This document shows, one piece after another, positions 6,001 to 62,821 of a DNA stretch of 64,000 bases. The notes under the pieces were generated by a model, which saw nothing but the letters and a program-made list of their open reading frames with translations, was not told the DNA's origin and did not search any database. The translations under genes were made by a program, and so were the position numbers. Positions within the stretch are counted from its first letter, which is position 1, and the number at the start of each line of letters is the position of its first letter. Origin of the DNA: Halichondria panicea (Eukaryota > Porifera > Demospongiae > Suberitida > Halichondriidae); contig NC_087391.1 of the NCBI RefSeq assembly GCF_963675165.1, positions 3,956,646 to 4,020,645 of the forward strand. The letters run 5' to 3'.

Positions 6001-9000
6001 GGTATTCTCAAAGCAATTTATGTCTTAATCAGACTATTTACAAACATTAAATGGTACACAAAGTAATCGAATATAGCCCTAATCAAATACAGAGAATGGA
6101 GCTATAGATATGTTGGGCATAGAAGCATTAGAAGAGAGACGGAATGCCCCTAGAGAAGTTCACAGCCCAAAACAAAGTACTAATCAGGATCAAGTCAATC
6201 ATAGGTATGATCTTCATACGTAATCTAACGTAAAGAAGCTCCATTTTAATCATGCCCTATAGCTGTACATACATCCCCTGTGGGTTTCCTGTTTAGGCTA
6301 CAGTACACACTTTGACCTCCATGCACTGCACTGACAGTGACACCCTGACAGGTGTATACCCAGAAAGCCCTAATCACTAGAGCTAACCAAGCACTCCCGA
6401 CAACTTAGTAAATAGAAGTGCCAAATACATGTACAAGGGATGTGCTGTTATTGTCTCTTTGATAAACAGAGCTAGAAGAAGCAACACTGCTGCAGCATAA
6501 TTATTCTACTTTGATTAGTGTCTCTGAAAGCTGCCATTGTGGTCACATTGTCATATGTATTCTTCCTCTTTGTTCGTTTTTTTACAATTTGTATTATGAA
6601 ATTGCTGTCAATTATCGCATACCAGGCGGCCTTTCTCTTCGCGGCCTGGAATCGAGGCTAACATGTACACTGCACTATTGACACAACACCCACATATACA
6701 TGTAACACCCTGTTTACAATGATAGCTGAGTCACATGACTAGTGACAATATTCATGGGTGGTGAAATCACCTCCCCATCCTACAGGAAAACGACGGGAAT
6801 CAAAACAAATGCACGAGAATGTAAACAACATGATCTACATGTATAGGATGTAAACACACTAGAGCTAATGAGCTGTAGTTTATAGGGAGTTCTCTTATAC
6901 ATGTACGGATATATACGGATAATCAAAATCAGGCACAGTCATTATTAATTTTGCTGACTGAGCCTAGTGAAACTCTAGTGCCAGTCAACAATGACATAGT
7001 AGTTGACAGACATAGTAGTTGACAGACATAGCTAATGGTATTAACGGCTGGGAAATATGAGTGCAACTCAATTAAAGCTCTAACCTACATGTAATCCATA
7101 TGTCACAAAGAATAGATGTTACCACAACACACAGCTTTGTAATTACAGCTTAGACACAACGTTTCTTCTCTGCACCCATTCAACTGTGTCGCAATCAGAT
7201 ACCATGTCAGTACACTAGCTAGCATCAAAATACTGAGATTGCAGAGGTTAGGGCAAAACGAGTAGACTAGTACCACGGCAATCACAATGATGTCCTGCAA
7301 ATAGTCTCAAAGGATTTCATTGCAAAGAAAGTCACATACGTATTAACTCACATTTTCATGATGGGCTCCTGGTCGACTTGTTCTGGCCATGGCCTCCGCT
7401 CCAAGTCTGACTGAGGTATTGTGCGAGGGGTCCTTGGATGTGGGCGGGGCTTGCTGATCATATGATCAGTGGAAACCTGCAGGACCAAAAAGATACTCTT
7501 TAACAGGGGTACATTTCTACTAGGTAGATGCGTTTATGAGTTTCCTGTACTACCAGGAGGCATGAATATTCATGCACTCCTGGTAGCCCATCAAAACACC
7601 CTCATTAAGGTGAATAGTCTTGCTGTCTACATGGCAGCTCAAGGGAGAATTCACTCAAAGGAGTTTACACTGACATATCACATAGTGTGGGGGTGGACAG
7701 GGAAAATGGGAAAATAGGGAAAATACAAGAATGGTGGTGCATTTCTATAAAGGAAATGCTTCTATAATCAAAGGAAGTAAACAAACCAATGTATGCATGT
7801 ATTGTACACTGCTATCTATTAATGGATACATCACTATATAGAAGCTGTCAGGAAACCCTTCCCTGTGGTATCTGTGGTATTGAAAGGGAATGTGTGTACC
7901 CAAACAGATAAGGGACGATGCACTTTCCCTTCTCACACTAAATGCGCTTGCCACAGGCAAGTACAAATACAAACAAACTTAGCAACCAATAATATTAGGA
8001 GCCAAGCTGCCTCCTCTCATTCCCATTACATCATCATGAAACATGCTTACTGTCACAGCTGCACACTTACGTATGCATGATAATGTTATAGTACATTAGG
8101 TGTCGGCAAGTCTCATTTTAAGCTATTCCGAGAAAACTACTGTCAATGGAAGGAAGGCAAAAATAGCTGCCTTCCACTATTGTTATACCTAATTCCTAAT
8201 CTATGGTATTTCCGATGTGCATACCGAGTGCATATGTTTTAATAGGGAGCCAGTTTTACCTGCTGTGATCGAGGGTTATTCCGCAGCTGCATGCTCCACA
8301 CGTGTCTTCCAGTGAGGCTGCGGACAACAGCTGTCACTGTAGGCAGTGAGCTTGCATCGTCGTCATGGAATGCACCCTCCAATAGACCAAGCACCAGTGA
8401 ATTGTCCATGATGAAGTACTGGAACTTTGCATTTTCCTGTTATGCAAGGACAATTGAAACAGGTCGCAAAGTTGTAGATGGTACCTTTGTTTCAGGCCGA
8501 AGCTTCGATATAATGTCTTCTTCGGAGAGCAAAGAAGATAAAGCCTCAGCTCCACACGGTGATGGGAATGCACCCTGTGATGGAATAAACATACCATGTG
8601 CAAAAAAAAAAAAAACATGAAATTGTGACACAGAAATGAATAATGCTATCCTATCCCTATTATTTAACCTTGAAAAAAGAATGGGTCAGTAGGAGGAGGA
8701 CATGGACTGAAGAAAAATAATAAATAAAATAAGTGTGTGCTGTAAGAAAAAATAGAGTTGAGTCAGACTATATTGCTCGGGCTGCTAACTGATACCTATT
8801 CACAGATGCTATCCCCCTACTGCCTATCACGAAACCTTTTGCCTGCTGCTTTTCAGCCCTGGGCCAGTACGATTTTCATTATTCAACCTGGACATTTTAG
8901 ACTCATCTGAAACACCCATGTTGATGCTAGACTTAGAGCGGACACCCGATCGACATAGAATATCAACCACCAGGATTCCCGACCTCAAACCCTTCAACAA

Positions 9001-12000
9001 CTCTAGCTCTGGAAGCTCCAGTTACAGCCACACGCGACCTTGGCCAGCTGACATTTATGGACACATATTTTGCTTATAACCACCTCAAAACTCATTTCTA
9101 CTACAGTAAAACACCTACAGCCTTCTCCATGACACAGGAGAGTATGAATTCAGCCATTTCTTTCACTCTTCCAGAAATTGGCTTCATCTCCTTGTTGCCT
9201 ATTTCAAGAATAAAGCAAAAAAACACAAAAAAAACACTGAATACATAATTCTAAATGGTTGAGGCCTTCTTCACCTTTGTACACCTTCTCCCCATTTGCC
9301 ATCTGCAGAAAAGAAGGGAAGGTGCAGTGATTAAAATCAGGCAACTCGGGCATGTACCATCTCTTCTAGTGCAGAGAAACTAATCAAAAGATCACAGCAT
9401 GTGTCCCAATCATGTATCGGTATTATCGATATTAAAACTGCATGTACATATGCATTATGCTATAATAATTACAGAGGTCAAGAGTACAGTGAATATCTAT
9501 ACTCAGACTCACAGATGACACTGTGCCTGACACACCCAGTTCTATCACCTCCATTACAGCTGTCAGTGACTCCTGCAAGGGAGGTTGCACTATGAGCACC
9601 ATCGTTTAACATATTATATGCACTAGCTCATGCATGCAGTTGCCATAATGTACGTCCTCGGAACCAGAACTGTACGTGTACAGTTATTTCACACACAGTG
9701 ATCACAGTTCCCAACACCAGCCTCTGTTATTATAGATCACCATGCACCGCCCACTGTGTTTGCTATACTACACTTAATTGTGTTCCTGCCGCCATTGAGA
9801 GGGGGACCACGACCTTTGAAGTAATTACATCAGGAATGTAGTAATGTCCTTAGCAAACGGATTAACCCTAGATAAATTGTTAGGTTGCCTGGGTTTCATT
9901 CAGTACCCACATACACGTATACTGTCTCCAGTACGTAGGGGATTTACCAGATACAATACATATACATGTACATGTACGTGTAGACCTCATACAAATTTAG
10001 TCACACAACTCATTGGAACTATTACCAGGTCGCCCACACACATAGTACACAGTCTAAACAACAGAAAATACACAATGTGTAACAATCAGATCGACATCTT
10101 GAAACCTGTGTGCATGCATGTGTACACAGATGAAGCTAGTGTGAGCCACCTTGTAACCTAGGAGATAGGGGTGTGCATTGATCCAGCGTAGCAGGGTGTT
10201 GAGAGCAGCCACTATGGACGTGTGGAGATCCTTGTTGTGTTGAGGCCTGTCCTTCATGGCTTGGTGCTGGATAAAGCTACACACCAGCAGCACAGGATGC
10301 TGACAGTCACTGCGATCTGTGGGAGTAGAGATTGTAAAACGTTGACAATACCGTATTTGTACAAATTGCTAATAAACAGACTGCATCAGGTTTAACAAAA
10401 GATTGTGCTGATAAGTAGTTTATCAAACCGTATCTACAGGTATCTTTGGTATAATTACCCCGTACAATTATTAATAGGAGCCCTACAACTAACTACACAT
10501 CTCCCCGTACTAATGTCCTCGATTTGCAGCTCTGCCAGTCCCCCAAAGAGCTCTAGTGCAGCCAAGGCCACTTGCACGTTAGTCTCTCCCCACTCAGTCA
10601 GACAGTAGTTGCCCGATGTCACAGCCTGCTGGAACAGAGACGACGTTGAATAGACTGTGTGTGTGTGGAGGGGGGAGGGGATGTGTGTATGTGGGGAGGG
10701 TGTGTGGGTGGGGGATGCATGTGTGGGGTGGAGGGTGGGGGAGGATGTGTGAGTGGGGGATGCATGTGTGTGGTGGAGGGTGGGGGAGGATGTGTGGGTA
10801 GGGGATGCATGTGTGTGGTGGAGGGTGGGGGAGGATGTGTGGGTAGGGGATGCATGTGTGTGGTGGAGGGTGGGGGAGGATGTGTGGGTAGGGGATGCAT
10901 GTGTGTGGTGGAGGGTGGGGGAGGATGTGTGGGTAGGGGATGCATGTGTGGGGTGGAGGGTGTGTGGGTGGGGGAGGATGTGTGGGTAATTGAACATAGG
11001 TAAGGGGCAAACAGTAGCTATTCATGACTGAGCCTGATTGTACGCCCACGAATAAAATGTTTTCCCCTACAACAACAAACAGGCACCTACAACTACAACA
11101 AACAGGCAAGGTTTCTGCATTTTGGACGCCCTCATATTTCTAGGAAGAGGCCTGTAATACATTAACACGCATGAATTGATTTATGTGATAAAACGTATCA
11201 CTGTAGTAACCACTACATACATGTACATGTACATGTACATCCAACAATTCACCTAGTCAACAAAGAGGCATAATTGCTTTCAAACGGGCCTTATTTGGAA
11301 TGAGCGTATGGAATTTTAATTTTAAGCAATTAAGTAATTAAATAATATGGGTGCACCAGGACATACGTACATGTACATACGTATCTAATAAGATACGCAT
11401 AGATTTTCAAAGTAACAACAATCCATGGATAGTTCCAGGATGAAGACATGCCACATGAAACATTGTGTGGGCGTTCAGTGGACATACCGGTGCCATTTAG
11501 CCATAATTATAACAGAATATTCACTCCCCAATCTAACATACACCTTGATATTTTATCCACAGTTCCAACTTCCAATTTCAATAAGATGGTTTAATTTATC
11601 AATTGATAGCAGCACTAGTGCAAGCACGCACACACACACAATTATTAGTAGATTGGCAGTGGGTTCGTAGGTGTTCAGACATAATTATTTTCACTCATGT
11701 TCAAACTGTTATAATGTATCTCGATTCTGCAGAGAAAGGCTTGATCTGAAAACGGACTGGACAGGTTTATTTAGCCTTTTCTGTGTATGTATGTCTGATA
11801 TTATAATCTATAATGAATGAATACTGTCATTTGGAAGAATACAGAACTTGTACTATCTTGGTTAATAGGTTAATTCGTCATTCAGATCAGAATAGAATAA
11901 GGCAAGAGTACTCGGGATTTGCTGAGGTATGGGCCCTCAGCATAGTGTACACACCAAACACACAGTGTACTGTACACAAACAAGTCTGGAAGTATTTGAA

Positions 12001-50207: not shown

Positions 50208-51995
50208 CTAGTGCGTGTTTGTGTATTTGTGTGAGTCTTTGACATGATCGAGTAAGTCAGCCACTGCTTCAAATGCTAGCCTAGTTAGGGGTTCTTGTTT
50301 CCAGCAACCCAGCATGATGTCATAGAATGTCTCTGGGCAATTTTCAGGTCGAGGCATTAGGAGTCCTGTTTTTATTCTCTGTATGGCTGAATCGTTTGTA
50401 CTGTCTGAAAATGGCTCTTTGCCTGTTATAACTTCCCAAATTAACATTCCATACGACCATACATCTGATTTCAAGGATTGGTACTGTTCAATGAACGTTT
50501 CTGGAGCACACCATTTTATTGGGGCCCTAAAACCTTGAGTACTGACAGTTTGCTCATAATCATCAAGCTTTACCGCTGAACCGAAATCGCTCAGTTTGCA
50601 TGTGACATTTTCACCTACGAGTACATTAGTAGCTTGTATTTTTCTGTGCATACATAGTTTTTGCTGGAGATAGTCAAGCCCAAGTGCTACTTGCTTGCAT
50701 ATCAATACATGCTGGTGCAGTAAGAGAGGGTTTGTTCTCACGTAGTTTTGCAGATTTCCATTTGGTACCAGCTCCAAAATCATGCACACTGTTTCTTCTG
50801 TTACAAATAAATCGTACAGTTGAACAATATTTTCATGCTTAAGGTTCTTCAGAATATCTGCCTCTACCAAAATGTGTTTAGTAGAACCAGTTGACAAGTG
50901 TTCCTTTTTGATTACAACTTCCTTGTCGTTATATGTGCCTTTCCAAATTTCTCTTGTGCTTTTGCTATAAAGTATTGAAGTCAGTAATAGATTTGTATCT
51001 TGTTGAACAGGCACATCATCCAATTTTTTAGAGTTACTTTCCAGATTCTTTGATCTAGCCATGAAATTGTTTGTTATCTTCTCTAGTCGTTGTTCAATGA
51101 GTTTCTTGTAATCCTTAAAATGTTTTTCTGATTGATCCTTCAACTCTTGTATTATTCTATCTTTATTCTTGAGCTGATGTGTGTGCAACTCCCTTAATCT
51201 TTTAAAATTTATTTCTTGTTTTTTCACCAATTGTACAATTTCTTCATCTTTTTTCTCAATTTCTTCTGCAAACAATCTCGTTACAAGCGATAAGTGGGTC
51301 TGTGCATCTTCTTTTAAATGTTCAAGTAAGTTTCCTCGCTCTACTTGATTTGTACAGCCAGCACATTGGAAATCACACTCAACTACTACTTTTGGACATT
51401 CTGCAAAGTGTTGTTGCAAGTACATTTTTTTGATGTCACGCTCTCCACAGCTGTTGGGGCAATCAACGGGCAGCTGGGAACACTCGGATTTATGTTGTCC
51501 AGTGATCACCTCCTTTTTATCTTTCTCGTTGCAGTGAGGGCAGGTGACTAGTCGATATGGGCATAGAAGCTCCAAATGTTCTTCCACCTCATTTTTCTCC
51601 AGTTTTTCTCCGCATCCATTTACGCAGACGGTTCTAAGGTATTCACAATCTCCATTGGATGAGTCAAGATGAGCTCCTCGTGCTCTTAGCTCTCCCGTCC
51701 AAAGACAGCCTCGATTAGTAAACGGGCATTTCACATCAAGTTCGAGAATTTTCCCCCATTTTTGTTTGTCAAGTATAGCAGTGATATTATCCTGTTCACA
51801 TTTAGGGCACTCATACTCATTTCCATAAGATTTTTCTACGCAAGGTGCACAGAAATGATTTCCACAGCACTCGGTTAACATTGGCATTCTCATAACTTCC
51901 TTGCAGTATCCACAGATATACTCATTCTGTGGAGGATCTATGAAGTCCCATTTGTGGCGTAAGACGTCCCTGTTGTGCAGGTTTTTTACATCCAT
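50208..51995 (-). CDS. RING/TRAF-zinc-finger protein with C-terminal pseudokinase, copy 1
   Basis: Intronless, 595 residues from the ATG at 51995 (MDVKNLHNRDVLRHKWDF). Order: RING-like finger about 28-66 (CGYCKEVM, TECCGNHFCAPC, CPKC); TRAF-type zinc fingers about 90-235 (CPFTNRGCLWTGEL, CVNGCGEKLEK, CPNSCGERDIKKMYLQQH, CDFQCAGCTNQVERGNLLEH); coiled coil about 235-325 (EEIEKKDEEIVQLVKKQE); protein-kinase fold about 335-590 in the position usually held by MATH. Kinase checks: the ATP-binding Lys is present (VVIKKE), helix-C Glu present (VEADILKNLKHENIVQL), the HRD motif reads HRKIQATN (catalytic Asp to Lys), DFG kept (SDFGSAV), and there is no Gly-rich loop. So it is a predicted pseudokinase. 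It likely acts as a cytosolic E3/scaffold whose oligomerisation is set by the coiled coil; function is inferred. The neighbour upstream is copy 2, 668 bp away or more. Confidence 0.88.
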   Translation of the reverse strand: MDVKNLHNRDVLRHKWDFIDPPQNEYICGYCKEVMRMPMLTECCGNHFCAPCVEKSYGNEYECPKCEQDNITAILDKQKWGKILELDVKCPFTNRGCLWTGELRARGAHLDSSNGDCEYLRTVCVNGCGEKLEKNEVEEHLELLCPYRLVTCPHCNEKDKKEVITGQHKSECSQLPVDCPNSCGERDIKKMYLQQHFAECPKVVVECDFQCAGCTNQVERGNLLEHLKEDAQTHLSLVTRLFAEEIEKKDEEIVQLVKKQEINFKRLRELHTHQLKNKDRIIQELKDQSEKHFKDYKKLIEQRLEKITNNFMARSKNLESNSKKLDDVPVQQDTNLLLTSILYSKSTREIWKGTYNDKEVVIKKEHLSTGSTKHILVEADILKNLKHENIVQLYDLFVTEETVCMILELVPNGNLQNYVRTNPLLLHQHVLICKQVALGLDYLQQKLCMHRKIQATNVLVGENVTCKLSDFGSAVKLDDYEQTVSTQGFRAPIKWCAPETFIEQYQSLKSDVWSYGMLIWEVITGKEPFSDSTNDSAIQRIKTGLLMPRPENCPETFYDIMLGCWKQEPLTRLAFEAVADLLDHVKDSHKYTNTH

Positions 51996-52004
51996 CTTCA
52001 ACAA

Positions 52005-52671
52005 TCTATATAATTATGCTGCCTGTCTCTAATAATTATTATATTAAGTCGATGTTGATATAGGTGTATATGCATGGTCTGTTTGGTTTTACAGTTTATG
52101 TTTGTGTTTCTATATAGTGATTGCAAACTGTTAACTACAACATTTATTATGTTTCAATGTTGGTGTTTCCATAGTGATCGCAAACTGTCAACACCCTAAC
52201 ACAAGTTATATCCTGCATGCAGCTATTTTAATAGAGTTCAATGTTTGTGTTTCCACATGCAGTGATTGCAAGCTGTCACGATTACTGTATAGGTGGCAAA
52301 CTTTTAACTATAGGCCTTGGCGGATTTCACAGCACCGCCACGATTTTAGGTGCCTTTTGCTTTTGAGCATAGTCTGACTTTTATCAAATGAGAGCAAAAA
52401 AACACTGACACAGCCACATGAATCAAGGCTATAGGCTACATATAGTGCTGAAATTTGGTTCTACTGGCTTTGTGCAATTATGGCTTCCAGAATTCCTTTA
52501 ATTTGAGTGACTTTGTGACTCACTGCTGAATAACATAAACTTAGATCAACTTAGATACATTTGTGTATAATTTTCAGAATATTATTAATGAAAAAGCAAT
52601 TATAAATAGATGGATAAAAAAGGTGAATAGATGTAACTAAAAGTTGAGCAAAATCTTCCAAGGCTATAGAT
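52005..52671. other. Spacer between TRAF-pseudokinases 1 and 2
   Basis: AT-rich. It carries three related direct repeats, each with TGTTTCCATAGTGATCGCAA-like sequence (near 52110, 52165 and 52250), and is duplicated at about 60001-60670. It must contain the gene 1 promoter and gene 2 terminator. No gene is seen. Confidence 0.6.
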
Positions 52672-54462
52672 CTACGCTTGTACCTGTTGTTCAGTCAGTT
52701 TTTGCATAGAGCTTTGTATGATATCAGAGAGTGCACTGAATGAAGGTCTAGAAGTGGGATCTCTGCTCATGCATTGAAGAATAACTTGGTGTATGTGTTC
52801 AGGACATTCCGGAGGACGGTCAATTGCTTGTCCTCTCGTGATGAATGTTTCTGCTTTTGAATTCGACATTTTCACAACTTTTTTTGTGATGATTTCGTAT
52901 TGCACAATTCCAAACGACCATACATCTGATTTGGTGGTACATTTACTCTCGATAAGAACTTCAGGTGCAGACCATTTGACAGGTGATCTCTCTCCTTGTG
53001 GGACTCTATATTCCGATTCACCTTGCTTCAATATTTTTGTTAATGAGAAGCTTCCTATTTTGAACTGTAGTGTGTTTGAAACTAAAACAGCACGAGATGT
53101 GATCCCCCTGTGTATGCAATTCAATCTCTCAAGATAAGACATTCCAGTGGCCACTTGTAGAATAATGTCAACCTGTCGTTTTTGAGTTAAAGCTTTGCCA
53201 TTGCTTTTGAGGTAGTTAGCGAGATTTCCATGCATCATGTACTCAGTGACGATCAGATAAGGTTCTTTCTTTGTGCATACTCCACATAATTGGATAATAT
53301 TTATGTGATCAAAATCTCTTAGCAAAGAAGCTTCCCCAAGAAATTTGGATGAAGTCATTGATCCTACTTTGTGCATTTTAATAGCAATTTGATATTTTCC
53401 GTACTGTTGTCCTTTCCATATCTCATTGAATTGACCTGACACTAGTTTTGAATCGAGTTGAACGGTGTCGGGATCAAGCTCCCAAAACAGACCAGGAAAT
53501 TTTGCAAATGTTTTTTTTACTGTATCTTCTCTGTATTGAAAAAATATGTTTAGCATGTCTTCTGTTTTGTTAATTGTGTCGCTAATCTCTTCTTTATAAA
53601 AGTCAATGCTTTTGATTTGTTCAGGATTTTTCTTTATCATTTTATTATCTCCTGTATCCTGTGTTGCTTTCAGCTGCTGCATAAATTTTGTGTCACTAAT
53701 TTTTTCATAGTCCTCGAACTTAAAACGACTCAGCATTCGTTTCTCCTGTATGAATCTCGAAACAAGATGAGCGTGTTTTTGAATACTCTTTTGGCGATGG
53801 TCGAGTATTTGCTTTCGTTTCAGAACCACATCACATCCAGCATATTTAAATTCACACCGAGTAATATATTCAGAGCATATGCTCATATGTTCATCAAAAT
53901 ATTCAAATTTGAAGCACTCTCCACAGCCATTGGGGCAAGCAACATTGCGATTGGGGCACATACAGTTATGCCAACCATCGTATTCACCACAGAGCTGGCA
54001 TTTCTCGGCAATGTTATTGTCCACCCTTTCTTCACCGCACTCAACGTGTGTGTGCACACAATCACCAATCAGGTGATCGTGGCAATTTTTGATATCTCCC
54101 GTCCACTGGCACCCCTTCACATGCATTGGGCATATCACTTTGAGGTCAAGAATTTTTTTCCATTTCGGTCTATCAAGAATGCATGCTACAGATGTCTGCT
54201 CACATGCAGGACATGTCAAGAGCTTGTTATTTTGAATATTTGGCTCTGCACATACTTTACAAAGGTGTGCTCCACAACATTCTATTAGCATCGGTTCTTT
54301 AAGTATCTTCTTACATTGCGAGCAGAAGTTATCTTCTGAAGGGCTTTCCACAAAAAGCAGTTGACATTCATGGATATCAAAGTGTTTGACTGAATCTATA
54401 TCTGTCATGCTGATATTTATACTACAGTTACTTCGAATTAATGTGCCTTGATCAACTAACAT
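52672..54462 (-). CDS. RING/TRAF-zinc-finger protein with C-terminal pseudokinase, copy 2
   Basis: Intronless, 596 residues from ATG 54462. The internal ATG at 54408 (MTDIDSVKHFDIHECQ) aligns better with copies 1 and 3 and may be the true start. RING-like CSQCKKIL with IECCGAHLCKVC and CPAC; TRAF-type fingers (CPMHVKGCQWTGDI, CPNGCGECFKFEYFDEHMSIC, CEFKYAGCDVVLKRKQILDH); a shorter helical linker; kinase fold from about 335. The glycine loop is partly kept (LVSGQFNEIWKG) and the Lys is present (IAIKMHK). HRD reads HRGITSRA (Asp to Gly, Asn lost) and DFG reads SFS, so this branch is more degraded than copies 1/3. PVKWSAPEVL and SDVWSFGIVQYEI show the C-lobe is intact. About 40% or less identical to copy 1 by eye, so copies 1 and 2 are an older duplication. 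Confidence 0.87.
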   Translation of the reverse strand: MLVDQGTLIRSNCSINISMTDIDSVKHFDIHECQLLFVESPSEDNFCSQCKKILKEPMLIECCGAHLCKVCAEPNIQNNKLLTCPACEQTSVACILDRPKWKKILDLKVICPMHVKGCQWTGDIKNCHDHLIGDCVHTHVECGEERVDNNIAEKCQLCGEYDGWHNCMCPNRNVACPNGCGECFKFEYFDEHMSICSEYITRCEFKYAGCDVVLKRKQILDHRQKSIQKHAHLVSRFIQEKRMLSRFKFEDYEKISDTKFMQQLKATQDTGDNKMIKKNPEQIKSIDFYKEEISDTINKTEDMLNIFFQYREDTVKKTFAKFPGLFWELDPDTVQLDSKLVSGQFNEIWKGQQYGKYQIAIKMHKVGSMTSSKFLGEASLLRDFDHINIIQLCGVCTKKEPYLIVTEYMMHGNLANYLKSNGKALTQKRQVDIILQVATGMSYLERLNCIHRGITSRAVLVSNTLQFKIGSFSLTKILKQGESEYRVPQGERSPVKWSAPEVLIESKCTTKSDVWSFGIVQYEIITKKVVKMSNSKAETFITRGQAIDRPPECPEHIHQVILQCMSRDPTSRPSFSALSDIIQSSMQKLTEQQVQA

Positions 54463-54857
54463 GCTTCAGCTAATATGTGCATCTACTATTTATTGTTAAT
54501 CAATACTGAAAGTAAAACTGAAGCTATGTATACACTAGATTTTACATGCACTTGAACTCTATTGTAAACATTGACAGATCAGTGTAATACTGCAGTTTTA
54601 TAACAATTGTCAAAAAACTAAACACGATCTACACATGTGCAGGAATGAGTGCACAACATTATTGGAAAAAGAATCACTGTAAGAAACGTAAACATCCTGC
54701 TAATTTACTAATTACATCCTGCTAATTTACTAATAACATCCTGCTAATTTACTAATAACATCCTGCTAATTTACTAATAACATCCTGCTAATTTACTAAT
54801 TTACATCCACTAGATACCAGTTTTAGCAGATCCTTTAGTTCTCTGCATGTCTATCGC
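54463..54857. other. Upstream region of TRAF-pseudokinase 2 with 22-bp minisatellite
   Basis: It holds a five-unit array, TAACATCCTGCTAATTTACT plus AA, at about 54691-54800. The same array stands at about 62655-62764 in the duplicate with no change seen. The promoter of gene 2 should lie between the array and 54462. Confidence 0.8.
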
Positions 54858-55036
54858 CTACACAAATCTGACCGTTCCTCTAGTCTCGGATTGTTCGCTT
54901 CTCTTTCCTTTTTGTGTGCCAGGCTCTTGGTCTTTATTTGGTTTGGGTGGGGAATCTGTCTTCCGACGTTTGTCCATTCTTCGTTTAAGTTTCATGCCAA
55001 TTCCTTTCTGAGTTCTATCACTTGTTGTAAATGTGA
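54858..55036 (-). other. Possible Lys/Arg-rich terminal exon
   Basis: A good polypyrimidine/acceptor (TTTTTCTTTTGCAG) precedes an open frame of about 58 codons ending in TAG. It reads TSDRTQKGIGMKLKRRMDKR with PPKPNKDQEPGTQKGKRSEQ. It looks like the last exon of an unrecognised gene. No upstream exon could be linked. An identical copy lies at 62822-63000, which gives no conservation evidence because the whole surrounding DNA is near-identical. The longer open frame (to 55478) crosses repeats and is not believed. Confidence 0.3.
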
Positions 55037-55279
55037 CTGCAAAAGAAAAATACAACACAGATCTGCATAACACAAGGAAAACAGCGATTATAGAGAACCT
55101 TAACCCCTCCCCCCCCCAACACATGCACTGTTGTGTTGTTGTTGGTAGATTAATTGCTGTGATTTGTGTTATAATAATAATAATAATATCATCTAAGTGA
55201 TTTGTTGCGTCAGAAACAAAGTATATACTTGCTATAAGAATCTTCATTTGCATGATAATATAATGCATGAAGGAGCTAT

Positions 55280-55300
55280 CCCTAACCCTAACCCTAACCC
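55280..55300. repeat. Interstitial telomere-like repeat
   Basis: Three CCCTAA units plus CCC, the animal telomere hexamer. The same array is at 63244-63264. It directly abuts the left end of a CGTATA-family element (55301-55545). Confidence 0.8.
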
Positions 55301-55545
55301 ATTTATAAAGCGTGTATATTTCGAGGGTATAAATGTTTGCGGTTTTTGCTATTAAACATGTACCGCGAACATTTATATATACCCACGAATTTAATATCGC
55401 ATCAATGCATGCTGCAGAAAGGCTGCATGCTATTATGCGAAAATTAAAATAATCCGCAAAAACCTTTTTAACGGTCATTCCGCGAAAGTTTATATATACC
55501 GTCGGAATATACCTGCTATATTAAAATTATATATATACGGTATAT
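55301..55545. mobile_element. MITE-like element of the CGTATA family
   Basis: It contains TATTTCGAGGGTATAAATGT, GTTTGCGGTTTTTGCTATTA and an inverse CGCGAAAGTTTATATATACC, and ends near ATATACGGTATA. Related in parts to the element at 32283-32617 (shared GAGGGTATAAATGTTTG). A near-identical copy is at about 63265-63508. Confidence 0.55.
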
Positions 55546-56041
55546 AGATAGCACTTGTGTGTATGCGTTGTGGGTGTGTCGTATACTGCATGATGTGTCT
55601 TGCAGCCTTTGTTTGTTTGTTTTTTTGCAGTGCTGGACCTTAACTCTAGTTCATGGTGTTTATGATGAATGAATCAAAATGAGTAGATATATAGTGATAC
55701 TGCATGTTTGACTCATGTTACGTTTTTTTTTTCTTTTTTGGGTCGCATATAATTATGTGTCTGCAAGCATTACAAAGGACTTCAAGTGGATTGACTGTTA
55801 GTTTATGCAATGACCACTGTAATTGCATTAACAAAGGAAACACAATGTACAGTGTGTGTTATAGTCATGTTTCAACTTCAGTCAACCAACCTAATCCAAT
55901 TGCAGCTGCACTGTACCAGTAACCACACAACTAGCATTGTAGACCAATAATATACGACTATATGATATGTGTATTTTGCCTACGCTTCACTTTCCCTTTC
56001 TCGTTTCTACATGCAGGATGGCACTTTTATGGACCAGTTCA

Positions 56042-57526
56042 CCATCATCAAACACTATATACCTGGACCCTACAATATGACTTTATAATTCATCGAATCG
56101 ATCTCTGTTCATCTCTTCGATTTTGCATATTAAAAAAAAAATTATATATACATGTATGATGATGACAATCAGCAAAATAAAAATTATAATGGACAAGTTT
56201 ATAATTATTGTTGAAGTTTGTTCACTAACTAGTATAAGTGTTAATAAATGTCCTCTCGATATTGTTGGCTAGGGCCCCTCCCTCCACCCCATGGCCCCTC
56301 AAAGCCTCCACCATGTCTGACCAGCTCGGAGATCCTTTCTTGAACCATGCCTCCAGCATTGCAACAAAACACTTCTCTGTGTTATTGTAGTTAGTCTCTC
56401 TGATACTCTGCATAAAAAGCGAGTATATTATAGAAGATTATAGGATAGATTAGAGCGATTATCTATAATTAATATTTATAATGACTGCATGCTATAGGTT
56501 ACCCCCCCCCCCCCCCCCCCCGATCAATTCACCTAACACATTCTATAACAAACTAATTTGGATATACTACTTCACACAACCCAAGCATGCATGCAATACT
56601 TACAATCAATAGTTCCACTGTCCACATCCAAGTTAATGGCCAGGTGGTACCACTTTGCACGAGCATCCCAAGTAGCATCTTTGACAGTCTTGAGAGTTAT
56701 GTCACCACCTGTAGCTGTGGCCTCATCTGGACAAAGGGTGGACGTGATTTGGTAACGAAAACAAGTAGCAAAATGTAACAGCCAGAACATGTAAGGAATA
56801 CTTATACAGTGTACAGTTGTCAAAACAAAGGTATGACGTACATACATATATCTTGTAAATAATTAAGTAAAAATAGGCACATTAATTTAGGAGTATGCAG
56901 AGCATGTTTAGGGCGAGCGAGCAATTTTTTATTTGTTGTACAGTGATTAGCCTAATCATTGTACCTATACAATGTCGTAATTTTAAGTAGTCTATATTGT
57001 TTATTTATTTATGAAATTAGTATTATTATTATTATTGTTTATCGTGATTGTGAATAACCGAGTAGTCTGATGTAGATACGACTTCGCTGCATGTGCCAGA
57101 TGTATACCCGTGACAATTATTCTGAGTGCATGGTGTAGGGTTGTTGTGGTCTTTGACTGTGCATGGTGTAACATCAAGTTGACTTAGAGTGAAACATAAT
57201 TATCTATGAGTGAAAGTTCAGCATGAAAGAGCTGGCTGTACAAACTAAGCAAGGAGATATTATAACTTTTTGCTGGACCCAAATTAGAACAAATTACAAA
57301 GGCTATACTGTCAGTGTAAACAATCCTAGTAAGCTACTCTGACCTGTTGTAAGCGTGCCTGTGTGGCCTCAGAAGTTTTTATCTGAGCTGGTCTGACCTG
57401 CCAGGCCGTAGTGTCAGTACGTATATATATCAGTAGATCTATATATACAGACAGAATTGTGTGCCAATATTGAATACAGCGGCTATTCGAAGCTATGATT
57501 GAGACATTAAAGGAACAGGTAGAAAA
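56042..57526. other. Spacer between duplicated blocks
   Basis: No counterpart in the window. It holds the two death-domain-like exon pieces (56225-56726), a poly-C run of about 19 near 56503-56521, and AT-rich sequence with ATTATT runs near 57020. From 56730 to 57526 nothing coding is seen on either strand. Confidence 0.6.
56225..56726 (-). pseudogene. Two exons that together resemble a death domain
   Basis: Exon 56604-56726 (acceptor TTTGTCCAG, donor GTAAGT) reads LKTVKDATWDARAKWYHLAI with NLDVDSGTID; exon 56225-56407 (acceptor TTTTTATGCAG) reads NNTEKCFVAMLEAWFKKG with WSDMVEALRGHGVEGGALAN and ends NTYTS-stop. Joined, the pattern W..LA..L......I / C...ML..W...G..W..L..AL is that of a death domain. 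But the first exon ends in phase 1 and the second reads in phase 0; a canonical join gives an immediate TAG. Either the sequence has an indel, an exon is missing, or the gene is decaying. No upstream exons were found before TRAF-pseudokinase 3. Confidence 0.5.
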
Positions 57527-58158
57527 GTGGTTTAACAGGTCAAGCTGTACGCAAGGCTATAGAGATCACATAACAGCACTAAATTCTTTAGAACACACCT
57601 ATAGCCAAAATTGCGTATTTTAATGCTGGTGCACTCGGATGGACTCAAGGTTAACGTGGTGCACTCGAGTTAAAACACTTATAATATTCGCTAGGTGCGT
57701 TCTAAATAATATAAATCCATGCTTCCTGAAAGATTTGGTCCGCCCAGATTTTGCCCTCGTTATAGGGGGTGCTGTTTTTGGAGCTAGCTTTGATGGCCTG
57801 TAAAATTTGAGCATATAATTACCTAGTTACCAAACTGAACAATGCATTCTGTAGATATTTCTATATATAGGTTTGATTTACTTGCTGGTCACAAAAGCTA
57901 TACACTGGCACTCCCCCCCCCCCCCCAAATGAGAAGCTAGCTTTGAGTTTTGAATTGATTACCAGTTATCTATAACTGAGCAAATTTAGACGAGTCACAC
58001 TAATTCATGACTGTGTCCATCCCTTCATTGTCGTAATACTATCCACTTTGCCCCTCCCCCCTCTAAATGCATCCCTACATGTTAAATAAGTATTCACATT
58101 TACTGTTTATATACTGTTTATATATAATTATAGCATACATAAGCAAAAACTACAATAG

Positions 58159-59943
58159 TTACTCTACTAGTGCGTATTTGTGTGGGTCTCTGACATGATC
58201 GAGTAAGTCAGCCACTGCTTCAAATGTTGGCCTTGTTAGGGGTTCTTGTTTCCAGCAACCCAGCATGATGTCATAGAATGTCTCTGGGCAATTTTCAGGT
58301 CGAGGCATCAGGAATCCTGTTTTTATTCTCTGTATGGCGAAATCGTTTGTACTGTCTGAAAATGGCTCTTTGCCTGTTATGACTTCCCAAATTAACATTC
58401 CGTATGACCATACATCTGATTTCAAGGATTGGTGCTGTTTAACAAATGTTTCTGGAGCACACCATTTTATTGGGGCCCTAAAACCTTGAGTACTGACAGT
58501 TTGCTCATAATCATCAAGTTTTACTGCTGAACCGAAATCGTTAAGCTTACACGTTACATTTTCACCTACGAGTACATTTGCAGCTCGTATTTTTCTATGG
58601 ATACATAGTTTTTGCTGGAGATAGTCAAGCCCAAGTGCTACTTGCTTGCATATCAATACATGCTGGTGCAGTAAGAGAGGGTTTGTTTTCACGTAGTTTT
58701 GCAGATTTCCATTTGGTACCAGCTCCAAAATCATGCATACTGTTTCTTCCGTTACAAATAAATTGTACAGTTGAACAATATTTTCATGCTTAAGGTTCTT
58801 CAGAATATCTGCCTCTACCAAAATGTGTTTAGTAGAACCAGTTGACAAGTGTTCCTTTTTAATTATAACTTCCTTGTCGTTATATGTGCCTTTCCAAATT
58901 TCTCTTGTGTTTTTGCTATGAAGTATTGAAGTCAGTAATAGATTTGTACCTTGTTGAACAGGCACATCATCCAATTTTTTAGAGTTACTTTCCAGATCCT
59001 TCAATCTAGCCATAAAATTGTTTGTTATCTTCTCTAGTCGTTCTTCAATGAGTTTCTTGTAATCCTTAAAATGTTTTTCTGATTGATCCTTCAACTCCTG
59101 TATTGTTCTATCTTTATTCTTGAGCTGATGTGTGTGCAACTCCCTTAATCTTTTTAAATTGAGTTCTTGTTTTTCCACCAATTGTGCAATTTCTTCATCT
59201 TTTTTCTCAATTTCTTCGGCAAACAATCTCGTTACAAGCGATAAGTGGGTCTGTGCATCTTCTTTTAAATGTTCAAGTAAGTTTCCTCGCTCTACTTGAT
59301 TTGTACAGCCAGCACATTGGAAATCACACTCAACTACTACTTTTGGACATTCTACAAAGTGTTGTTGCAAGTAATTTTTTTTAATGTCACGCTCTCCACA
59401 GCTGTTGGGGCAATCAACGGGCAGCTGAGGACATTCGGATTTATGTTGTCCAGTGATCACCTCCTTTTTAGCTTTCTCGTTGCAGTGAGGGCAGGTGAAT
59501 AGTCGATATGGGCATAGAAGCTCCAAATGTTCTTCCACCTCATTTTTCTCTAGTTTTTCTCCGCATCCATTTACGCAGACAGTTCTAAGGTATTCACAAT
59601 CTCCGTTGGAAGAGTCAAGATGAGCTCCTTGTGCTCCTAGCTCTCCCGTCCAAAGACAGCCTCGATTTGTAAATGGGCATTTCACATCAGGTTCAAGAAT
59701 TTTCCCCCATTTTTGTTTGTCAAGTATAGCAGTGATATTATTCTGTTCACATTTGGGGCACTCGTACTCATTTCCGTAAGATTTTTCTATGCAAGATGCA
59801 CAGAAATGATTTCCACAGCACTCGGTTAACATTGGCCTTCTCATAACTTCCTTGCAGTGTCCACAGATATACTCATTTTGTGGAGGATCTATGAAGTCCC
59901 ATCTGTGTCGTAAGATGTCTCTGTGCAGGTTTTTTATATCCAT
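58159..59943 (-). CDS. RING/TRAF-zinc-finger protein with C-terminal pseudokinase, copy 3
   Basis: Duplicate of copy 1, 594 residues from the ATG at 59943 (MDIKNLHRDILRHRWDF). The frame is open to an upstream ATG at 60000, but the extension has no counterpart in copy 1. Same domain order and zinc ligands. HRD reads HRKIRAAN (Asp to Lys) and DFG is kept (NDFGSAV). Most differences from copy 1 are single residues spread along the protein, with one residue less near the start and a different last few codons (ending DPHKYALVE). The retained open frame after this much divergence argues that the protein, including its non-HRD loop, is maintained. Confidence 0.88.
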   Translation of the reverse strand: MDIKNLHRDILRHRWDFIDPPQNEYICGHCKEVMRRPMLTECCGNHFCASCIEKSYGNEYECPKCEQNNITAILDKQKWGKILEPDVKCPFTNRGCLWTGELGAQGAHLDSSNGDCEYLRTVCVNGCGEKLEKNEVEEHLELLCPYRLFTCPHCNEKAKKEVITGQHKSECPQLPVDCPNSCGERDIKKNYLQQHFVECPKVVVECDFQCAGCTNQVERGNLLEHLKEDAQTHLSLVTRLFAEEIEKKDEEIAQLVEKQELNLKRLRELHTHQLKNKDRTIQELKDQSEKHFKDYKKLIEERLEKITNNFMARLKDLESNSKKLDDVPVQQGTNLLLTSILHSKNTREIWKGTYNDKEVIIKKEHLSTGSTKHILVEADILKNLKHENIVQLYNLFVTEETVCMILELVPNGNLQNYVKTNPLLLHQHVLICKQVALGLDYLQQKLCIHRKIRAANVLVGENVTCKLNDFGSAVKLDDYEQTVSTQGFRAPIKWCAPETFVKQHQSLKSDVWSYGMLIWEVITGKEPFSDSTNDFAIQRIKTGFLMPRPENCPETFYDIMLGCWKQEPLTRPTFEAVADLLDHVRDPHKYALVE

Positions 59944-60000
59944 TTTGAACGGTCTATTACACTGAAGGCAGATCGAACTCTTTATAAGTATTATATACAT

Positions 60001-60670
60001 GCATGCTTGCCTGTCTCTAATATTATTTAAGTCGATATTGATATAGGTGTATGGTCTGTTTGGTTTTACAGTTTATGTTTTTGTGTAATTGTGTTTCCAT
60101 AGTGATAGAAAACTGTCAACTCGTGACAACATTTATTTATGTTTCAATGTTGGTGTTTCCATAGTGATCACAAACTGTCAACACCCTATATCATGCAGCT
60201 ATTTATTATTACTAGATAGGGTTTCAATGTTTGTGCTTCCACAGTGATTGCAGGCTGTCACAATTGCTTAATATCACTTTCAACTAACTTAGCGGATTTC
60301 ACTATAGCACTGTCCGCCACAATTTAGATGCCTTTTGCTTTTGAGCATAGTCCGACTTTTATCAAATAAGAGTTAGAGAGCAAAAAACACTGTCACAGCC
60401 ACACGAATCAAAGGCTAGGCTACATAGTGTTGAAAGTTAGTTCTACTGGCTTTATGCAATTATGGCTTCCAGAATTCCTTTAATTTGAGTAACTTTGACT
60501 CACTGCAGAATAATAATAATTTTGTACATAAATTATATAACATAAACTTAGATACGTTCGTGTATAATTCAGAAAACTAGATAGAAAAAGATGGGTGAAT
60601 AGATGTAACTAAAAAATGTAAATTTCAGCAAAATCTGCTAGGCCTATTATAGATCTACGCTTGTGCCTGT
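60001..60670. other. Spacer between TRAF-pseudokinases 3 and 4
   Basis: Counterpart of 52005-52671, with several indels. It repeats TTTCCATAGTGAT-like units near 60095, 60160 and 60240. No gene is seen. Confidence 0.6.
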
Positions 60671-62428
60671 TCAGTTAGTTCTTGCAAAGAGCTTTGTATG
60701 CATGATACCAGAGAGTACACTGAATGAAGGTCTAGAAGTGGGATCTCTGCTCATGCATTGAAGAATAACTTGGTGTATGTGTTCAGGACATTCCAGAGGA
60801 CGGTCAAGTTCTGGTCCTCTCGTGATGAATGTTTCTGCTTTCGAATTTGACATTTTCACTACTCTTTTTGTGATGATTTCGTATTGCACAATTCCAAACG
60901 ACCATACATCTGATTTGGTGGTACATTTACTCTCGATAAGAACTTCAGGTGCAGACCATTTGACAGGTGATCTCTCTCCTTGTGGGACTTTATATTCCGT
61001 TTCACCTTGCTTCAATATTTTTGCTAATGAGAAGCTTCCTATTTTGAACTGTAGTGTGTTTGAAACTAAAACAGCATGAGATGTGATTCCCCTGTGTATG
61101 CAATTCAATCTCTCAAGATAAGACATTCCAGAGGCCACTTGTCGAATAATGTCAACCTGTCGTTTTTGAGTTAAAGCTTTGCCATTGCTTTTGAGGTAGT
61201 TAGCGAGATTTCCGTGCATCATGTACTCAGTGACGATCAGATAAGGTTCTTTCTTTGTGCATACTCCACATAATTGGATAATATTTATGTGATCAAAATC
61301 TCTTAGCACAGAAGCTTCCCCAAGAAATTTGGATGAAGTCATTGATCCTACTTTGTGCATTTTAATAGCAATTTGATATTTTCCGTACTGTTGTCCTTTC
61401 CATATCTCATTGAATTGACCTGACACTAGTTTCGAATCGAGTTGAACGGTGTCGGGATCAAGCTCCCAAAACAGACCAGGTAATTTTGCCAATGTTTTTT
61501 TTACCGTATTTTCTCTGTATTGAAAACTTATGTTCAATATTTCTTCAGTTTTGTTAATTATGTCGCTAATCTCTTCTTTATAAAAGTCGATGCTTTTGCT
61601 CTGTTTAGCATTTTTCTTTATCATTTTTTTATCTCTCAGCTGCTGCATAAATTTTGTTTCATTAATTTTTTCGCAGTCCTCAAACTTAAAACGACTCAGC
61701 ATTCGTTTCCCATGTATGAATGTCAAAATAAGATGAGAGTGCTTTTGAATACTCTTTTGGCGATGGTCGAGTATTTGCTTTCGTTTCAGAACCACATCAC
61801 ATCCAGCATATTCAAATTCACACCGTGTAATACACTCAGAGCATATGCTCATATGTTCATCAAAATGTTCAAATTTGAAGCATTCTCCACAGCCATTGGG
61901 GCAAGTAAAATTGCGATTGGGGCACTTACGGTTGTGCCTACCATCGTATTCACCACAGAGCTGGCATTTCTCGGCAATGTTATTGTCCACCCTTTCTTCA
62001 CCGCACTCAACGTGTGTGTGTACACAATCACCAATCAGGTGATCGTGGCAATTTTTGATATCTCCCGTCCACTGGCACCCCTTCACATGCATTGGGCATA
62101 TCACTTTGAGGTCAAGAATTTTTTTCCATTTCGGTTTATCAAGAATGCATGCTACAGATGTCTGCTCACATGCAGGACATGTCAAGAGCTTGTTATTTTG
62201 AATATTTGGCTCTGCACATACTTTACAAAGGTGTGCTCCACAACATTCTGTTAGCATCGGTTCTTTAAGTATCTTCTTACATTGCGAGCAGAAGTTATCT
62301 TCTGAAGGGCTTTCCACAAAAAGCAGTTGACATTCATGGATATCAAAGTGTTTGACTGAATCTATATCTGTCATGCTGATATTTATACTACAGTTACTTC
62401 GAATTAATGTGCCTTGATCAACTAACAT
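60671..62428 (-). CDS. RING/TRAF-zinc-finger protein with C-terminal pseudokinase, copy 4
   Basis: Duplicate of copy 2, 585 residues from ATG 62428 (alternative start 62374). Domains as in copy 2. HRD reads HRGITSHA and DFG reads SFS, so it is a pseudokinase. Compared with copy 2 it lacks six residues in the linker after MQQL (in-frame deletion near 61635). A 4-nt insertion (ATGC near 60700) shifts the frame at the very end, replacing the last roughly 18 residues by HTKLFARTN. The kinase C-lobe up to RDPTSRPSF is intact, so the change may be tolerated. The N-terminal third is almost identical to copy 2. Confidence 0.86.
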   Translation of the reverse strand: MLVDQGTLIRSNCSINISMTDIDSVKHFDIHECQLLFVESPSEDNFCSQCKKILKEPMLTECCGAHLCKVCAEPNIQNNKLLTCPACEQTSVACILDKPKWKKILDLKVICPMHVKGCQWTGDIKNCHDHLIGDCVHTHVECGEERVDNNIAEKCQLCGEYDGRHNRKCPNRNFTCPNGCGECFKFEHFDEHMSICSECITRCEFEYAGCDVVLKRKQILDHRQKSIQKHSHLILTFIHGKRMLSRFKFEDCEKINETKFMQQLRDKKMIKKNAKQSKSIDFYKEEISDIINKTEEILNISFQYRENTVKKTLAKLPGLFWELDPDTVQLDSKLVSGQFNEIWKGQQYGKYQIAIKMHKVGSMTSSKFLGEASVLRDFDHINIIQLCGVCTKKEPYLIVTEYMMHGNLANYLKSNGKALTQKRQVDIIRQVASGMSYLERLNCIHRGITSHAVLVSNTLQFKIGSFSLAKILKQGETEYKVPQGERSPVKWSAPEVLIESKCTTKSDVWSFGIVQYEIITKRVVKMSNSKAETFITRGPELDRPLECPEHIHQVILQCMSRDPTSRPSFSVLSGIMHTKLFARTN

Positions 62429-62654: not shown

Positions 62655-62764
62655 AACATCCTGCTAATTTACTAATTACATCCTGCTAATTTACTAATAA
62701 CATCCTGCTAATTTACTAATAACATCCTGCTAATTTACTAATAACATCCTGCTAATTTACTAAT
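62655..62764. repeat. 22-bp minisatellite, duplicate array
   Basis: Same five units as at 54691-54800. Identical copy number in the two blocks is notable for such a fast-changing sequence and supports very recent duplication or conversion. Confidence 0.8.
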
Positions 62765-62821
62765 TTACATCCACTAGATACCAGTTTTAGCAGATCCTTT
62801 AGTTCTCTGCATGTCTATCGC

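What the first reader, a model, noticed from the sequence alone, without database searches (positions are those of the whole stretch)
50208..62428. Four TRAF-like proteins in which a pseudokinase replaces the MATH domain
Each protein has a RING-like finger, TRAF-type zinc fingers and a coiled coil, then a kinase fold where TRAF proteins carry MATH. Copies 1 and 3 have HRK for HRD with DFG kept; copies 2 and 4 have HRG and SFS. Loss of the catalytic Asp in every copy, with the ATP-site Lys kept, suggests selection for a signalling scaffold or allosteric pseudokinase coupled to ubiquitin ligation. I do not know a described animal family with this exact order, but could not search.
Basis: partly seen in the sequence, partly recalled or inferred. 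Interest (0 to 1): 0.85.

Follow-up and report, generated by a model that had tools for sequence, protein, structure and literature searches.

The report
TRAF-like proteins carrying dead Src kinases
An animal genome holds a small family of paired genes in which the front half of a TRAF-type signalling adaptor is joined to a Src-type kinase that has lost its key catalytic residue, suggesting a signalling scaffold built from a retired enzyme.

Summary
Four intact minus-strand frames encode a RING-like finger, zf-TRAF fingers, a long predicted helix and a tyrosine-kinase domain, without MATH. They belong to a family of 17 copies at five loci in this genome, in two old subfamilies: A (copies 1, 3) and B (copies 2, 4). 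HRD Asp is lost in 16 of 16 readable copies; ATP-site Lys and alphaC Glu are kept in 15 of 15 tabulated. The domain is Src-type; the nearest intact kinases found in the genome are SH2 kinases. Kinase dN/dS of 0.28 between diverged copies (p about 1e-9) shows the dead domain is maintained. Every locus holds A and B, three as divergent pairs. The nearest sampled N-terminal relatives include macrodomain proteins. A TRIM-type protein gained a Src-like pseudokinase separately. Against: three of 8 B copies are frame-broken; the window's own B copies show no significant constraint; the link to ubiquitin ligation is weak (usual hydrophobic E2-contact residue absent in 17 of 17). No expression, binding or activity data exist, the AlphaFold models failed, and animal proteomes could not be searched. 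My reading: a paired, non-catalytic TRAF-like scaffold in Src signalling.

The parts
50208..51995 (-). Copy c1 (subfamily A): RING-like, zf-TRAF, long helix, Src-type pseudokinase, 595 aa
51798..51914 (-). c1 RING-like finger
   Evidence: zf-C3HC4_2 below cut-off; ligands readable
51318..51494 (-). c1 zf-TRAF, best stretch
   Evidence: PF02176 E 4e-17, two stretches
51030..51338 (-). c1 long helix, possible coiled coil
   Evidence: AlphaFold single-sequence model, residues 220-322, block pLDDT 49-87; rest of model unusable
50256..50951 (-). c1 pseudokinase domain; Asp of HRD replaced by Lys at codon 50640-50642
   Evidence: PF07714 E 3e-64; motif table; residue numbers
52672..54408 (-). Copy c2 (subfamily B), 578 aa from MTDIDSV
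53797..53970 (-). c2 zf-TRAF
   Evidence: PF02176 28.6 bits, cut-off 27
52723..53460 (-). c2 pseudokinase domain; HRG, SFS, Tyr kept at the position of the intact kinases' activation-loop Tyr
   Evidence: PF07714 E 1e-72
58159..59943 (-). Copy c3 (subfamily A), 594 aa
59269..59445 (-). c3 zf-TRAF
   Evidence: PF02176 E 4e-16
58207..58902 (-). c3 pseudokinase domain (HRK, DFG)
   Evidence: PF07714 E 1e-65
60671..62374 (-). Copy c4 (subfamily B), 567 aa
61763..61936 (-). c4 zf-TRAF
   Evidence: PF02176 29.5 bits, cut-off 27
60713..61444 (-). c4 pseudokinase domain (HRG, SFS)
   Evidence: PF07714 E 1e-70

Best explanation
SHOWN by sequence: these are members of a two-branch family (A and B) that joins the RING/zf-TRAF/helix front half of a TRAF-like protein to the kinase domain of a Src-type tyrosine kinase. 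The catalytic Asp is gone from every readable copy, an A and a B gene sit together at every locus found, and selection keeps the protein sequence of the dead domain in the older pairs. INFERRED mechanism: the front half oligomerises the protein as in TRAFs. The pseudokinase takes the place of the receptor-binding MATH domain as the docking end and binds Src-type kinases or their partners. A and B act as partners, and phosphorylation of retained tyrosines (activation loop in B; activation loop and tail in A) by active Src-type kinases switches assembly. The output would be scaffolding or allosteric control of a Src-type kinase, not phosphorylation, and probably not canonical RING E3 activity.
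For: Kinase and zf-TRAF in 13 of 13 A/B proteins scanned, MATH in 0 of 13 (the other 4 copies were not scanned). PDB sequence search gives mostly Src/Fyn/Lck/Lyn/Hck chains. Own-genome SH2 kinases with HRDLAARN and DFG are the best-scoring kinases of normal sequence, 36-45% identical to the main A/B matches. HRD Asp lost in 16 of 16 readable copies (15, B_C5_1b); Lys and alphaC Glu kept in 15 of 15; all three loop glycines lost in A, two of three in B. Kinase dN/dS 0.28 for A_C5_2/A_C3 (p 1e-9), 0.28 for B_C3/B_C5_2 (p 4e-10), 0.20 for A_C15_1/A_C5_2 (dS near 2, saturated); intact kinases K1/K2 give 0.21. All five loci hold A and B; no solitary full-length A or B was listed (only 73 of 1242 and 73 of 1177 candidates were scored). 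Divergent pairs have 223, 243 and 254 bases between start codons; the gaps align best in the homologous orientation and share an invariant CTATATAAAC. Activation-loop Tyr in 5 of 6 tabulated B and 9 of 9 A copies, tail Tyr in 8 of 9 A. A TRIM-type protein on C17 joined a Src-like kinase separately and also degraded it.
Against: No expression, binding or activity data. Three of 8 B copies have a disrupted frame in the kinase domain (C5_1, C11, C15_3), against 0 of 9 A, so part of B may be decaying. c2/c4 show no significant constraint (whole protein 0.64, p 0.06; kinase 0.73, p 0.34), B_C15_1/B_C15_4 give 0.55, and the two C11 A copies give 0.56 on the kinase. A+B as one clade has 91/95 support on the kinase but 62/46 on the N-terminal module. 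Same-strand order at C15 and C11 does not demand co-regulation, and the shared promoter element is absent from the window. The A tyrosines do not align exactly with those of the intact kinases. Trimerisation, and any contact with Src kinases, was not tested.
Confidence: 0.5

Rival explanations
1. A Cbl-like E3 adaptor: the pseudokinase recruits Src-type kinases or their substrates and the RING ubiquitinates them.
For: RING zinc ligands readable in 8 of 8 B and 6 of 9 A copies; a TRIM-type RING protein in the same genome joined the same kinase type separately. Missing His is not telling by itself: 5 of 12 sampled TRAF-like paralogues also lack it.
Against: The residue two after the first RING Cys is I/L/V/M in 0 of 17 A/B copies, against 9 of 12 TRAF-like paralogues and 3 of 5 of the C2 group. 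Its role in E2 contact is recalled. Three A copies lack the RING His.
Confidence: 0.2
2. An immune decoy pair: the Src-like domain is bait for microbial factors that attack Src kinases; one partner senses and the other signals, as in plant paired NLRs with integrated decoys.
For: Linkage of two diverged partners at five of five loci, divergent arrangement at three, a four-unit tandem array, and large TRAF-like and TRIM-like expansions in the genome.
Against: Purifying selection rather than diversification on the older pairs; no interacting partner known; analogy only.
Confidence: 0.12
3. Local decay: a failed kinase fusion drifting to pseudogenes.
For: 3 of 8 B copies frame-broken; no significant constraint between c2 and c4.
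Against: 14 of 17 copies keep a full frame; kinase dN/dS 0.28 with p near 1e-9 in both subfamilies; Lys, alphaC Glu, His and Arg of HRD and Glu of APE kept in 15 of 15, the P+1 Trp in 13 of 15.
Confidence: 0.08
4. A kinase with unusual catalysis that still transfers phosphate without HRD Asp.
For: A copies at C15 keep Lys, Glu, the catalytic-loop Asn and DFG Asp.
Against: HRD Asp lost in 16 of 16, loop glycines lost in A; B also lost Asn and DFG Asp.
Confidence: 0.06

Closest known systems
TRAF family (RING, zf-TRAF, coiled coil, MATH; order recalled)
   Same: RING-like finger, TRAF-type zinc fingers and a long predicted helix, in that order
   Different: Src-type pseudokinase instead of MATH; usual hydrophobic RING residue absent
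RING/zf-TRAF proteins of the C2 loci of the same genome
   Same: Nearest sampled N-terminal module; A, B and these five group apart from 12 other TRAF-like proteins (99/99)
   Different: Macrodomain (PF01661) in two of three scanned
SH2 kinases of the same genome (C2:7249263 and neighbours)
   Same: Src-type kinase domain; activation-loop Tyr shared with B
   Different: SH2 in the two scanned, intact HRD and DFG in four of four; A/B have neither SH2 nor HRD Asp
Src-Aque1, a sponge-specific Src family (PMC8662651, passages read)
   Same: Lineage-restricted Src relative
   Different: Said there to share the SH3-SH2-kinase order; A/B have RING/zf-TRAF instead. Its sequences were not compared.
TRIM-type/Src-like fusion at C17:4784487-4786442
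   Same: RING-type front half plus a degraded Src-like kinase, same genome
   Different: B-boxes; keeps HRD, has Arg for the ATP-site Lys and no DFG; groups with the SH2 kinases on a long branch
Tribbles pseudokinases (recalled; PMC5382568 seen only in a search listing)
   Same: Pseudokinase scaffold linked to ubiquitination
   Different: Different kinase group; recruits an E3 rather than carrying a RING

Membership tests
TRAF family | zf-TRAF fingers after an N-terminal RING | tested here: met
   zf-TRAF over cut-off in 13 of 13 A/B proteins scanned; RING models below cut-off or absent in all 13, so the RING rests on readable ligands
TRAF family | C-terminal MATH (TRAF-C) domain | tested here: not met
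   0 of 13 scanned, while paralogue L028:860-2272 scores PF21355 at 1e-25 in the same library
TRAF family | Trimeric coiled coil | tested here: inconclusive
   One long helix in a poor AlphaFold model of c1; no oligomer modelled
Src family of tyrosine kinases | Src-like kinase domain | tested here: met
   the tree holds kinases of this genome only
Src family of tyrosine kinases | SH3-SH2 before the kinase | tested here: not met
   No SH2 or SH3 in 13 A/B proteins; SH2 found in both C2 kinases scanned
Src family of tyrosine kinases | Catalytic HRD Asp | tested here: not met
   Absent in 16 of 16 readable copies
Pseudokinases | Kinase domain lacking at least one of VAIK Lys, HRD Asp, DFG Asp | tested here: met
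   HRD Asp absent in all 16; DFG Asp also absent in 6 of 6 tabulated B and 2 of 9 A
Pseudokinases | No phosphotransfer activity | not testable with these tools
   needs purified protein
RING E3 ligases | Complete zinc ligands | tested here: inconclusive
   Complete in 8 of 8 B and 6 of 9 A; His missing in A_C5_1, A_C5_2, A_C3, and also in 5 of 12 sampled TRAF-like paralogues
RING E3 ligases | Hydrophobic E2-contact residue after the first Cys (role recalled) | tested here: not met
   I/L/V/M in 0 of 9 A and 0 of 8 B, against 9 of 12 TRAF-like paralogues and 3 of 5 of the C2 group
RING E3 ligases | Ubiquitin transfer activity | not testable with these tools
   needs purified protein

The most novel reading that the evidence does not exclude
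A and B are an obligate two-part animal sensor built on a TRAF chassis, with a Src-mimic pseudokinase as the sensing end: Src-type phosphorylation, or microbial attack on Src kinases, is read by one partner and relayed by the other. It would be an animal counterpart of paired plant NLRs with integrated decoys, and the exchange of MATH, macrodomain and pseudokinase ends on one front module would be a general way of making such sensors in this genome.
Probability: 0.12. Interest if true: 0.88.

Novelty: new variant of a known kind. Interest (0 to 1): 0.62.

Why it matters
No described protein known to me has this order, and none of the ten literature searches listed one. It shows tyrosine-kinase domains being recruited as non-catalytic parts into RING-type adaptors in an animal, apparently in two separate fusions in one genome (TRAF type and TRIM type). 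The A+B linkage at five of five loci predicts a heteromeric complex that can be tested directly. If it holds, it is a clean natural case for asking what a kinase fold is kept for once catalysis is lost.

Tried and rejected
AlphaFold on c1 alone (mean pLDDT 40.7) and on the c2 kinase domain aligned with the other three window kinase domains (40.7) gave models too poor for a fold search, so none was run.

Scans for relatives of A in bacterial/archaeal genomes and viral contigs found none. Both used two short N-terminal patterns, and neither collection is one of animal genomes, so they say nothing about how far the architecture is spread among animals.

The idea of a TKL/RIP-like kinase was dropped: Src-family chains fill the PDB lists (in both the first row is an EGFR chain whose score is the sum of two stretches). 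The idea that MATH was replaced in a MATH-bearing ancestor is not favoured, because the nearest sampled N-terminal relatives include macrodomain proteins, but ancestry was not reconstructed. A single fusion before the A/B split is suggested by the kinase tree (91/95) and not shown by the N-terminal tree (62/46). The CTATATAAAC element of the divergent pairs has 0 matches in the window, so it is not a family-wide promoter. Whether other zf-TRAF genes are spliced to kinase exons across introns was not examined.

In the N-terminal tree 12 rows are labelled MATH. A MATH match was seen for two of them (L028:860-2272; the 461-aa frame of L028). L029:544-1809 was scanned and gave no MATH at E 0.01; the other rows were labelled by eye. 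Read the label as TRAF-like.
Full report
OBSERVATION. One search lists four long minus-strand frames at the stated place, with likely starts giving 595, 578, 594 and 567 aa. Pfam finds a tyrosine-kinase-type domain and zf-TRAF in all four, a RING model below cut-off in c1 and c3 and none in c2 and c4, and no MATH. The four are two pairs one tandem unit of about 7.95 kb apart. The array continues to about C15:4034689 outside the window, giving four A and four B copies, one B broken. Units 2 and 4 are very close: their A genes differ by 0 synonymous and 2 nonsynonymous changes.

FAMILY. Searching the window's own genome with c1 and c2 gives relatives spanning zf-TRAF and kinase at four more loci: C3 (one A, one B), C5 twice (A+B each, about 34 kb apart) and C11 (two A, one B). 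With C15 that is 9 A and 8 B. No solitary full-length A or B was listed, but only 73 of 1242 and 73 of 1177 candidates were scored. Against c1 the other A loci are 40-48% identical; against c2 the other B loci are 43-47%; A against B is 34-40%. Thirteen of the 17 were scanned with Pfam: zf-TRAF and kinase in 13 of 13, MATH in 0 of 13.

DEAD KINASE. In the motif table (15 rows, with B_C15_3 and both parts of B_C5_1 left out) the HRD Asp is Lys (4), Arg (3) or Asn (2) in A and Gly (3), Ser (2) or Arg (1) in B. B_C5_1b has Cys, so 16 of 16 readable copies lack it. ATP-site Lys, alphaC Glu, His and Arg of HRD and Glu of APE are kept in 15 of 15. All three loop glycines are lost in A; B keeps the middle one. 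DFG Asp is kept in 7 of 9 A and 0 of 6 B. Four of four C2 kinases of this genome have every one of these motifs. Src, Fyn, Lck, Lyn and Hck chains fill the PDB lists, below one EGFR chain that ranks first by summing two stretches. In the kinase tree (25 rows, only kinases of this genome) A is 100/99, B 100/99 and A+B 91/95.

SELECTION. Nei-Gojobori counts: kinase dN/dS is 0.28 for A_C5_2/A_C3 (p 1.2e-9), 0.28 for A_C5_1/A_C5_2 (p 2e-5), 0.28 for B_C3/B_C5_2 (p 4e-10) and 0.23 for c1/c3 (p 1.5e-5). Intact K1/K2 give 0.21. Against this, c2/c4 give 0.64 overall (p 0.06) and 0.73 on the kinase (p 0.34), B_C15_1/B_C15_4 give 0.55 overall, and the two C11 A copies give 0.56 on the kinase. Three of 8 B copies are frame-broken within the kinase (longest single-base run near any break is 4), while none of 9 A copies is. 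Part of B may be relaxed or dying. Sequencing error was not excluded.

PAIRING. Each of the five loci has A and B. At C3 and both C5 loci they diverge, with 254, 243 and 223 bases between start codons. The gaps align better in the homologous orientation (72% mean column identity) than in the opposite one (67%), a modest difference on three sequences of which two are close, and share an invariant CTATATAAAC. C15 and C11 have B upstream of A on one strand. The A and B kinase trees both read (C11,(C15,(C3,C5))), with 89/80 at the B node; in the N-terminal tree that B node is unresolved. This fits duplication of the pair as a unit.

FRONT HALF. In the N-terminal tree (34 rows, B_C5_1b left out) A, B and five C2 proteins stand apart from 12 other TRAF-like proteins (99/99); A+B alone is not supported (62/46). 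Two of three C2-group proteins scanned have a macrodomain. A MATH match was seen for two of the 12, and one scanned row gave none. The RING position that is I/L/V/M in 9 of 12 TRAF-like proteins and 3 of 5 of the C2 group is so in 0 of 17 A/B. The RING His is missing in three A copies, but also in 5 of the 12. Ubiquitin ligation is thus doubtful, not excluded; the role of that position is recalled.

SECOND FUSION. C17:4784487-4786442 encodes RING, two B-box stretches and a Src-like kinase. It keeps HRD but has Arg for the ATP-site Lys and no DFG, and groups with the C2 kinases (95/93, long branch). One copy was listed, with 68 of 642 candidates scored. Two different RING-type front halves thus carry Src-like kinases degraded by different losses.

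MECHANISM AND RIVALS. The sequence shows a maintained, non-catalytic kinase domain on a TRAF-type front half, kept as A+B pairs. That it scaffolds or regulates Src-type kinases, that A and B associate, and that their tyrosines are phosphorylated (activation-loop Tyr in 5 of 6 B and 9 of 9 A, tail Tyr in 8 of 9 A) is inference. Rivals: Cbl-like E3, immune decoy pair, decay, unusual catalysis (see fields).

LITERATURE. Ten searches listed no paper whose title or abstract start describes this order. PMC8662651 was read in passages only: it describes Src-Aque1 as sharing the SH3-SH2-kinase order. PMC2837644 was read in passages and is about FYVE/PX domains. All others were seen only as search listings. 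The library lacks most subscription papers, and the Amphimedon genome paper and a pseudokinase survey were not held, so novelty in print is not established.

ORGANISM.

Noticed in passing
L025:1488-3443 (G000:C17:4784487-4786442): TRIM-type protein (RING, two B-box stretches) ending in a Src-like pseudokinase with HRD kept but ATP-site Lys and DFG lost; apparently a separate fusion of the same kind.
   Followed up: partly
L020:4514-7732, L019:3285-4763, L034:159-2768: RING/zf-TRAF proteins ending in a macrodomain (Pfam for L020 and L019; L034 read by eye).
   Followed up: partly
G000:C11:6008197-6011181 (L016:2198-5182): A-type protein of 995 aa with extra RING-like/zf-TRAF-like stretches ahead of the standard set.
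   Followed up: no
L014:4694-6718 and L015:2169-4298: B copies at C5 and C3 have long acidic tails with tyrosines in acidic context (EEEIYEKF, DEDIYTTM) that recall Src-kinase substrates; c2, c4 and B_C15_4 lack such tails.
   Followed up: no
window 54691-54808 and 62655-62772: A 22-bp tandem repeat of 5.3 copies upstream of c2 and of c4, duplicated with the unit.
   Followed up: no
window 8752-9048 (-): Complete metazoan SRP RNA, 222 bits.
   Followed up: no
G000:C3:5.88-6.31 Mb: Dense array of TRIM-like frames (many about 745 aa), 44-47% identical to the RING/B-box part of the C17 fusion.
   Followed up: no
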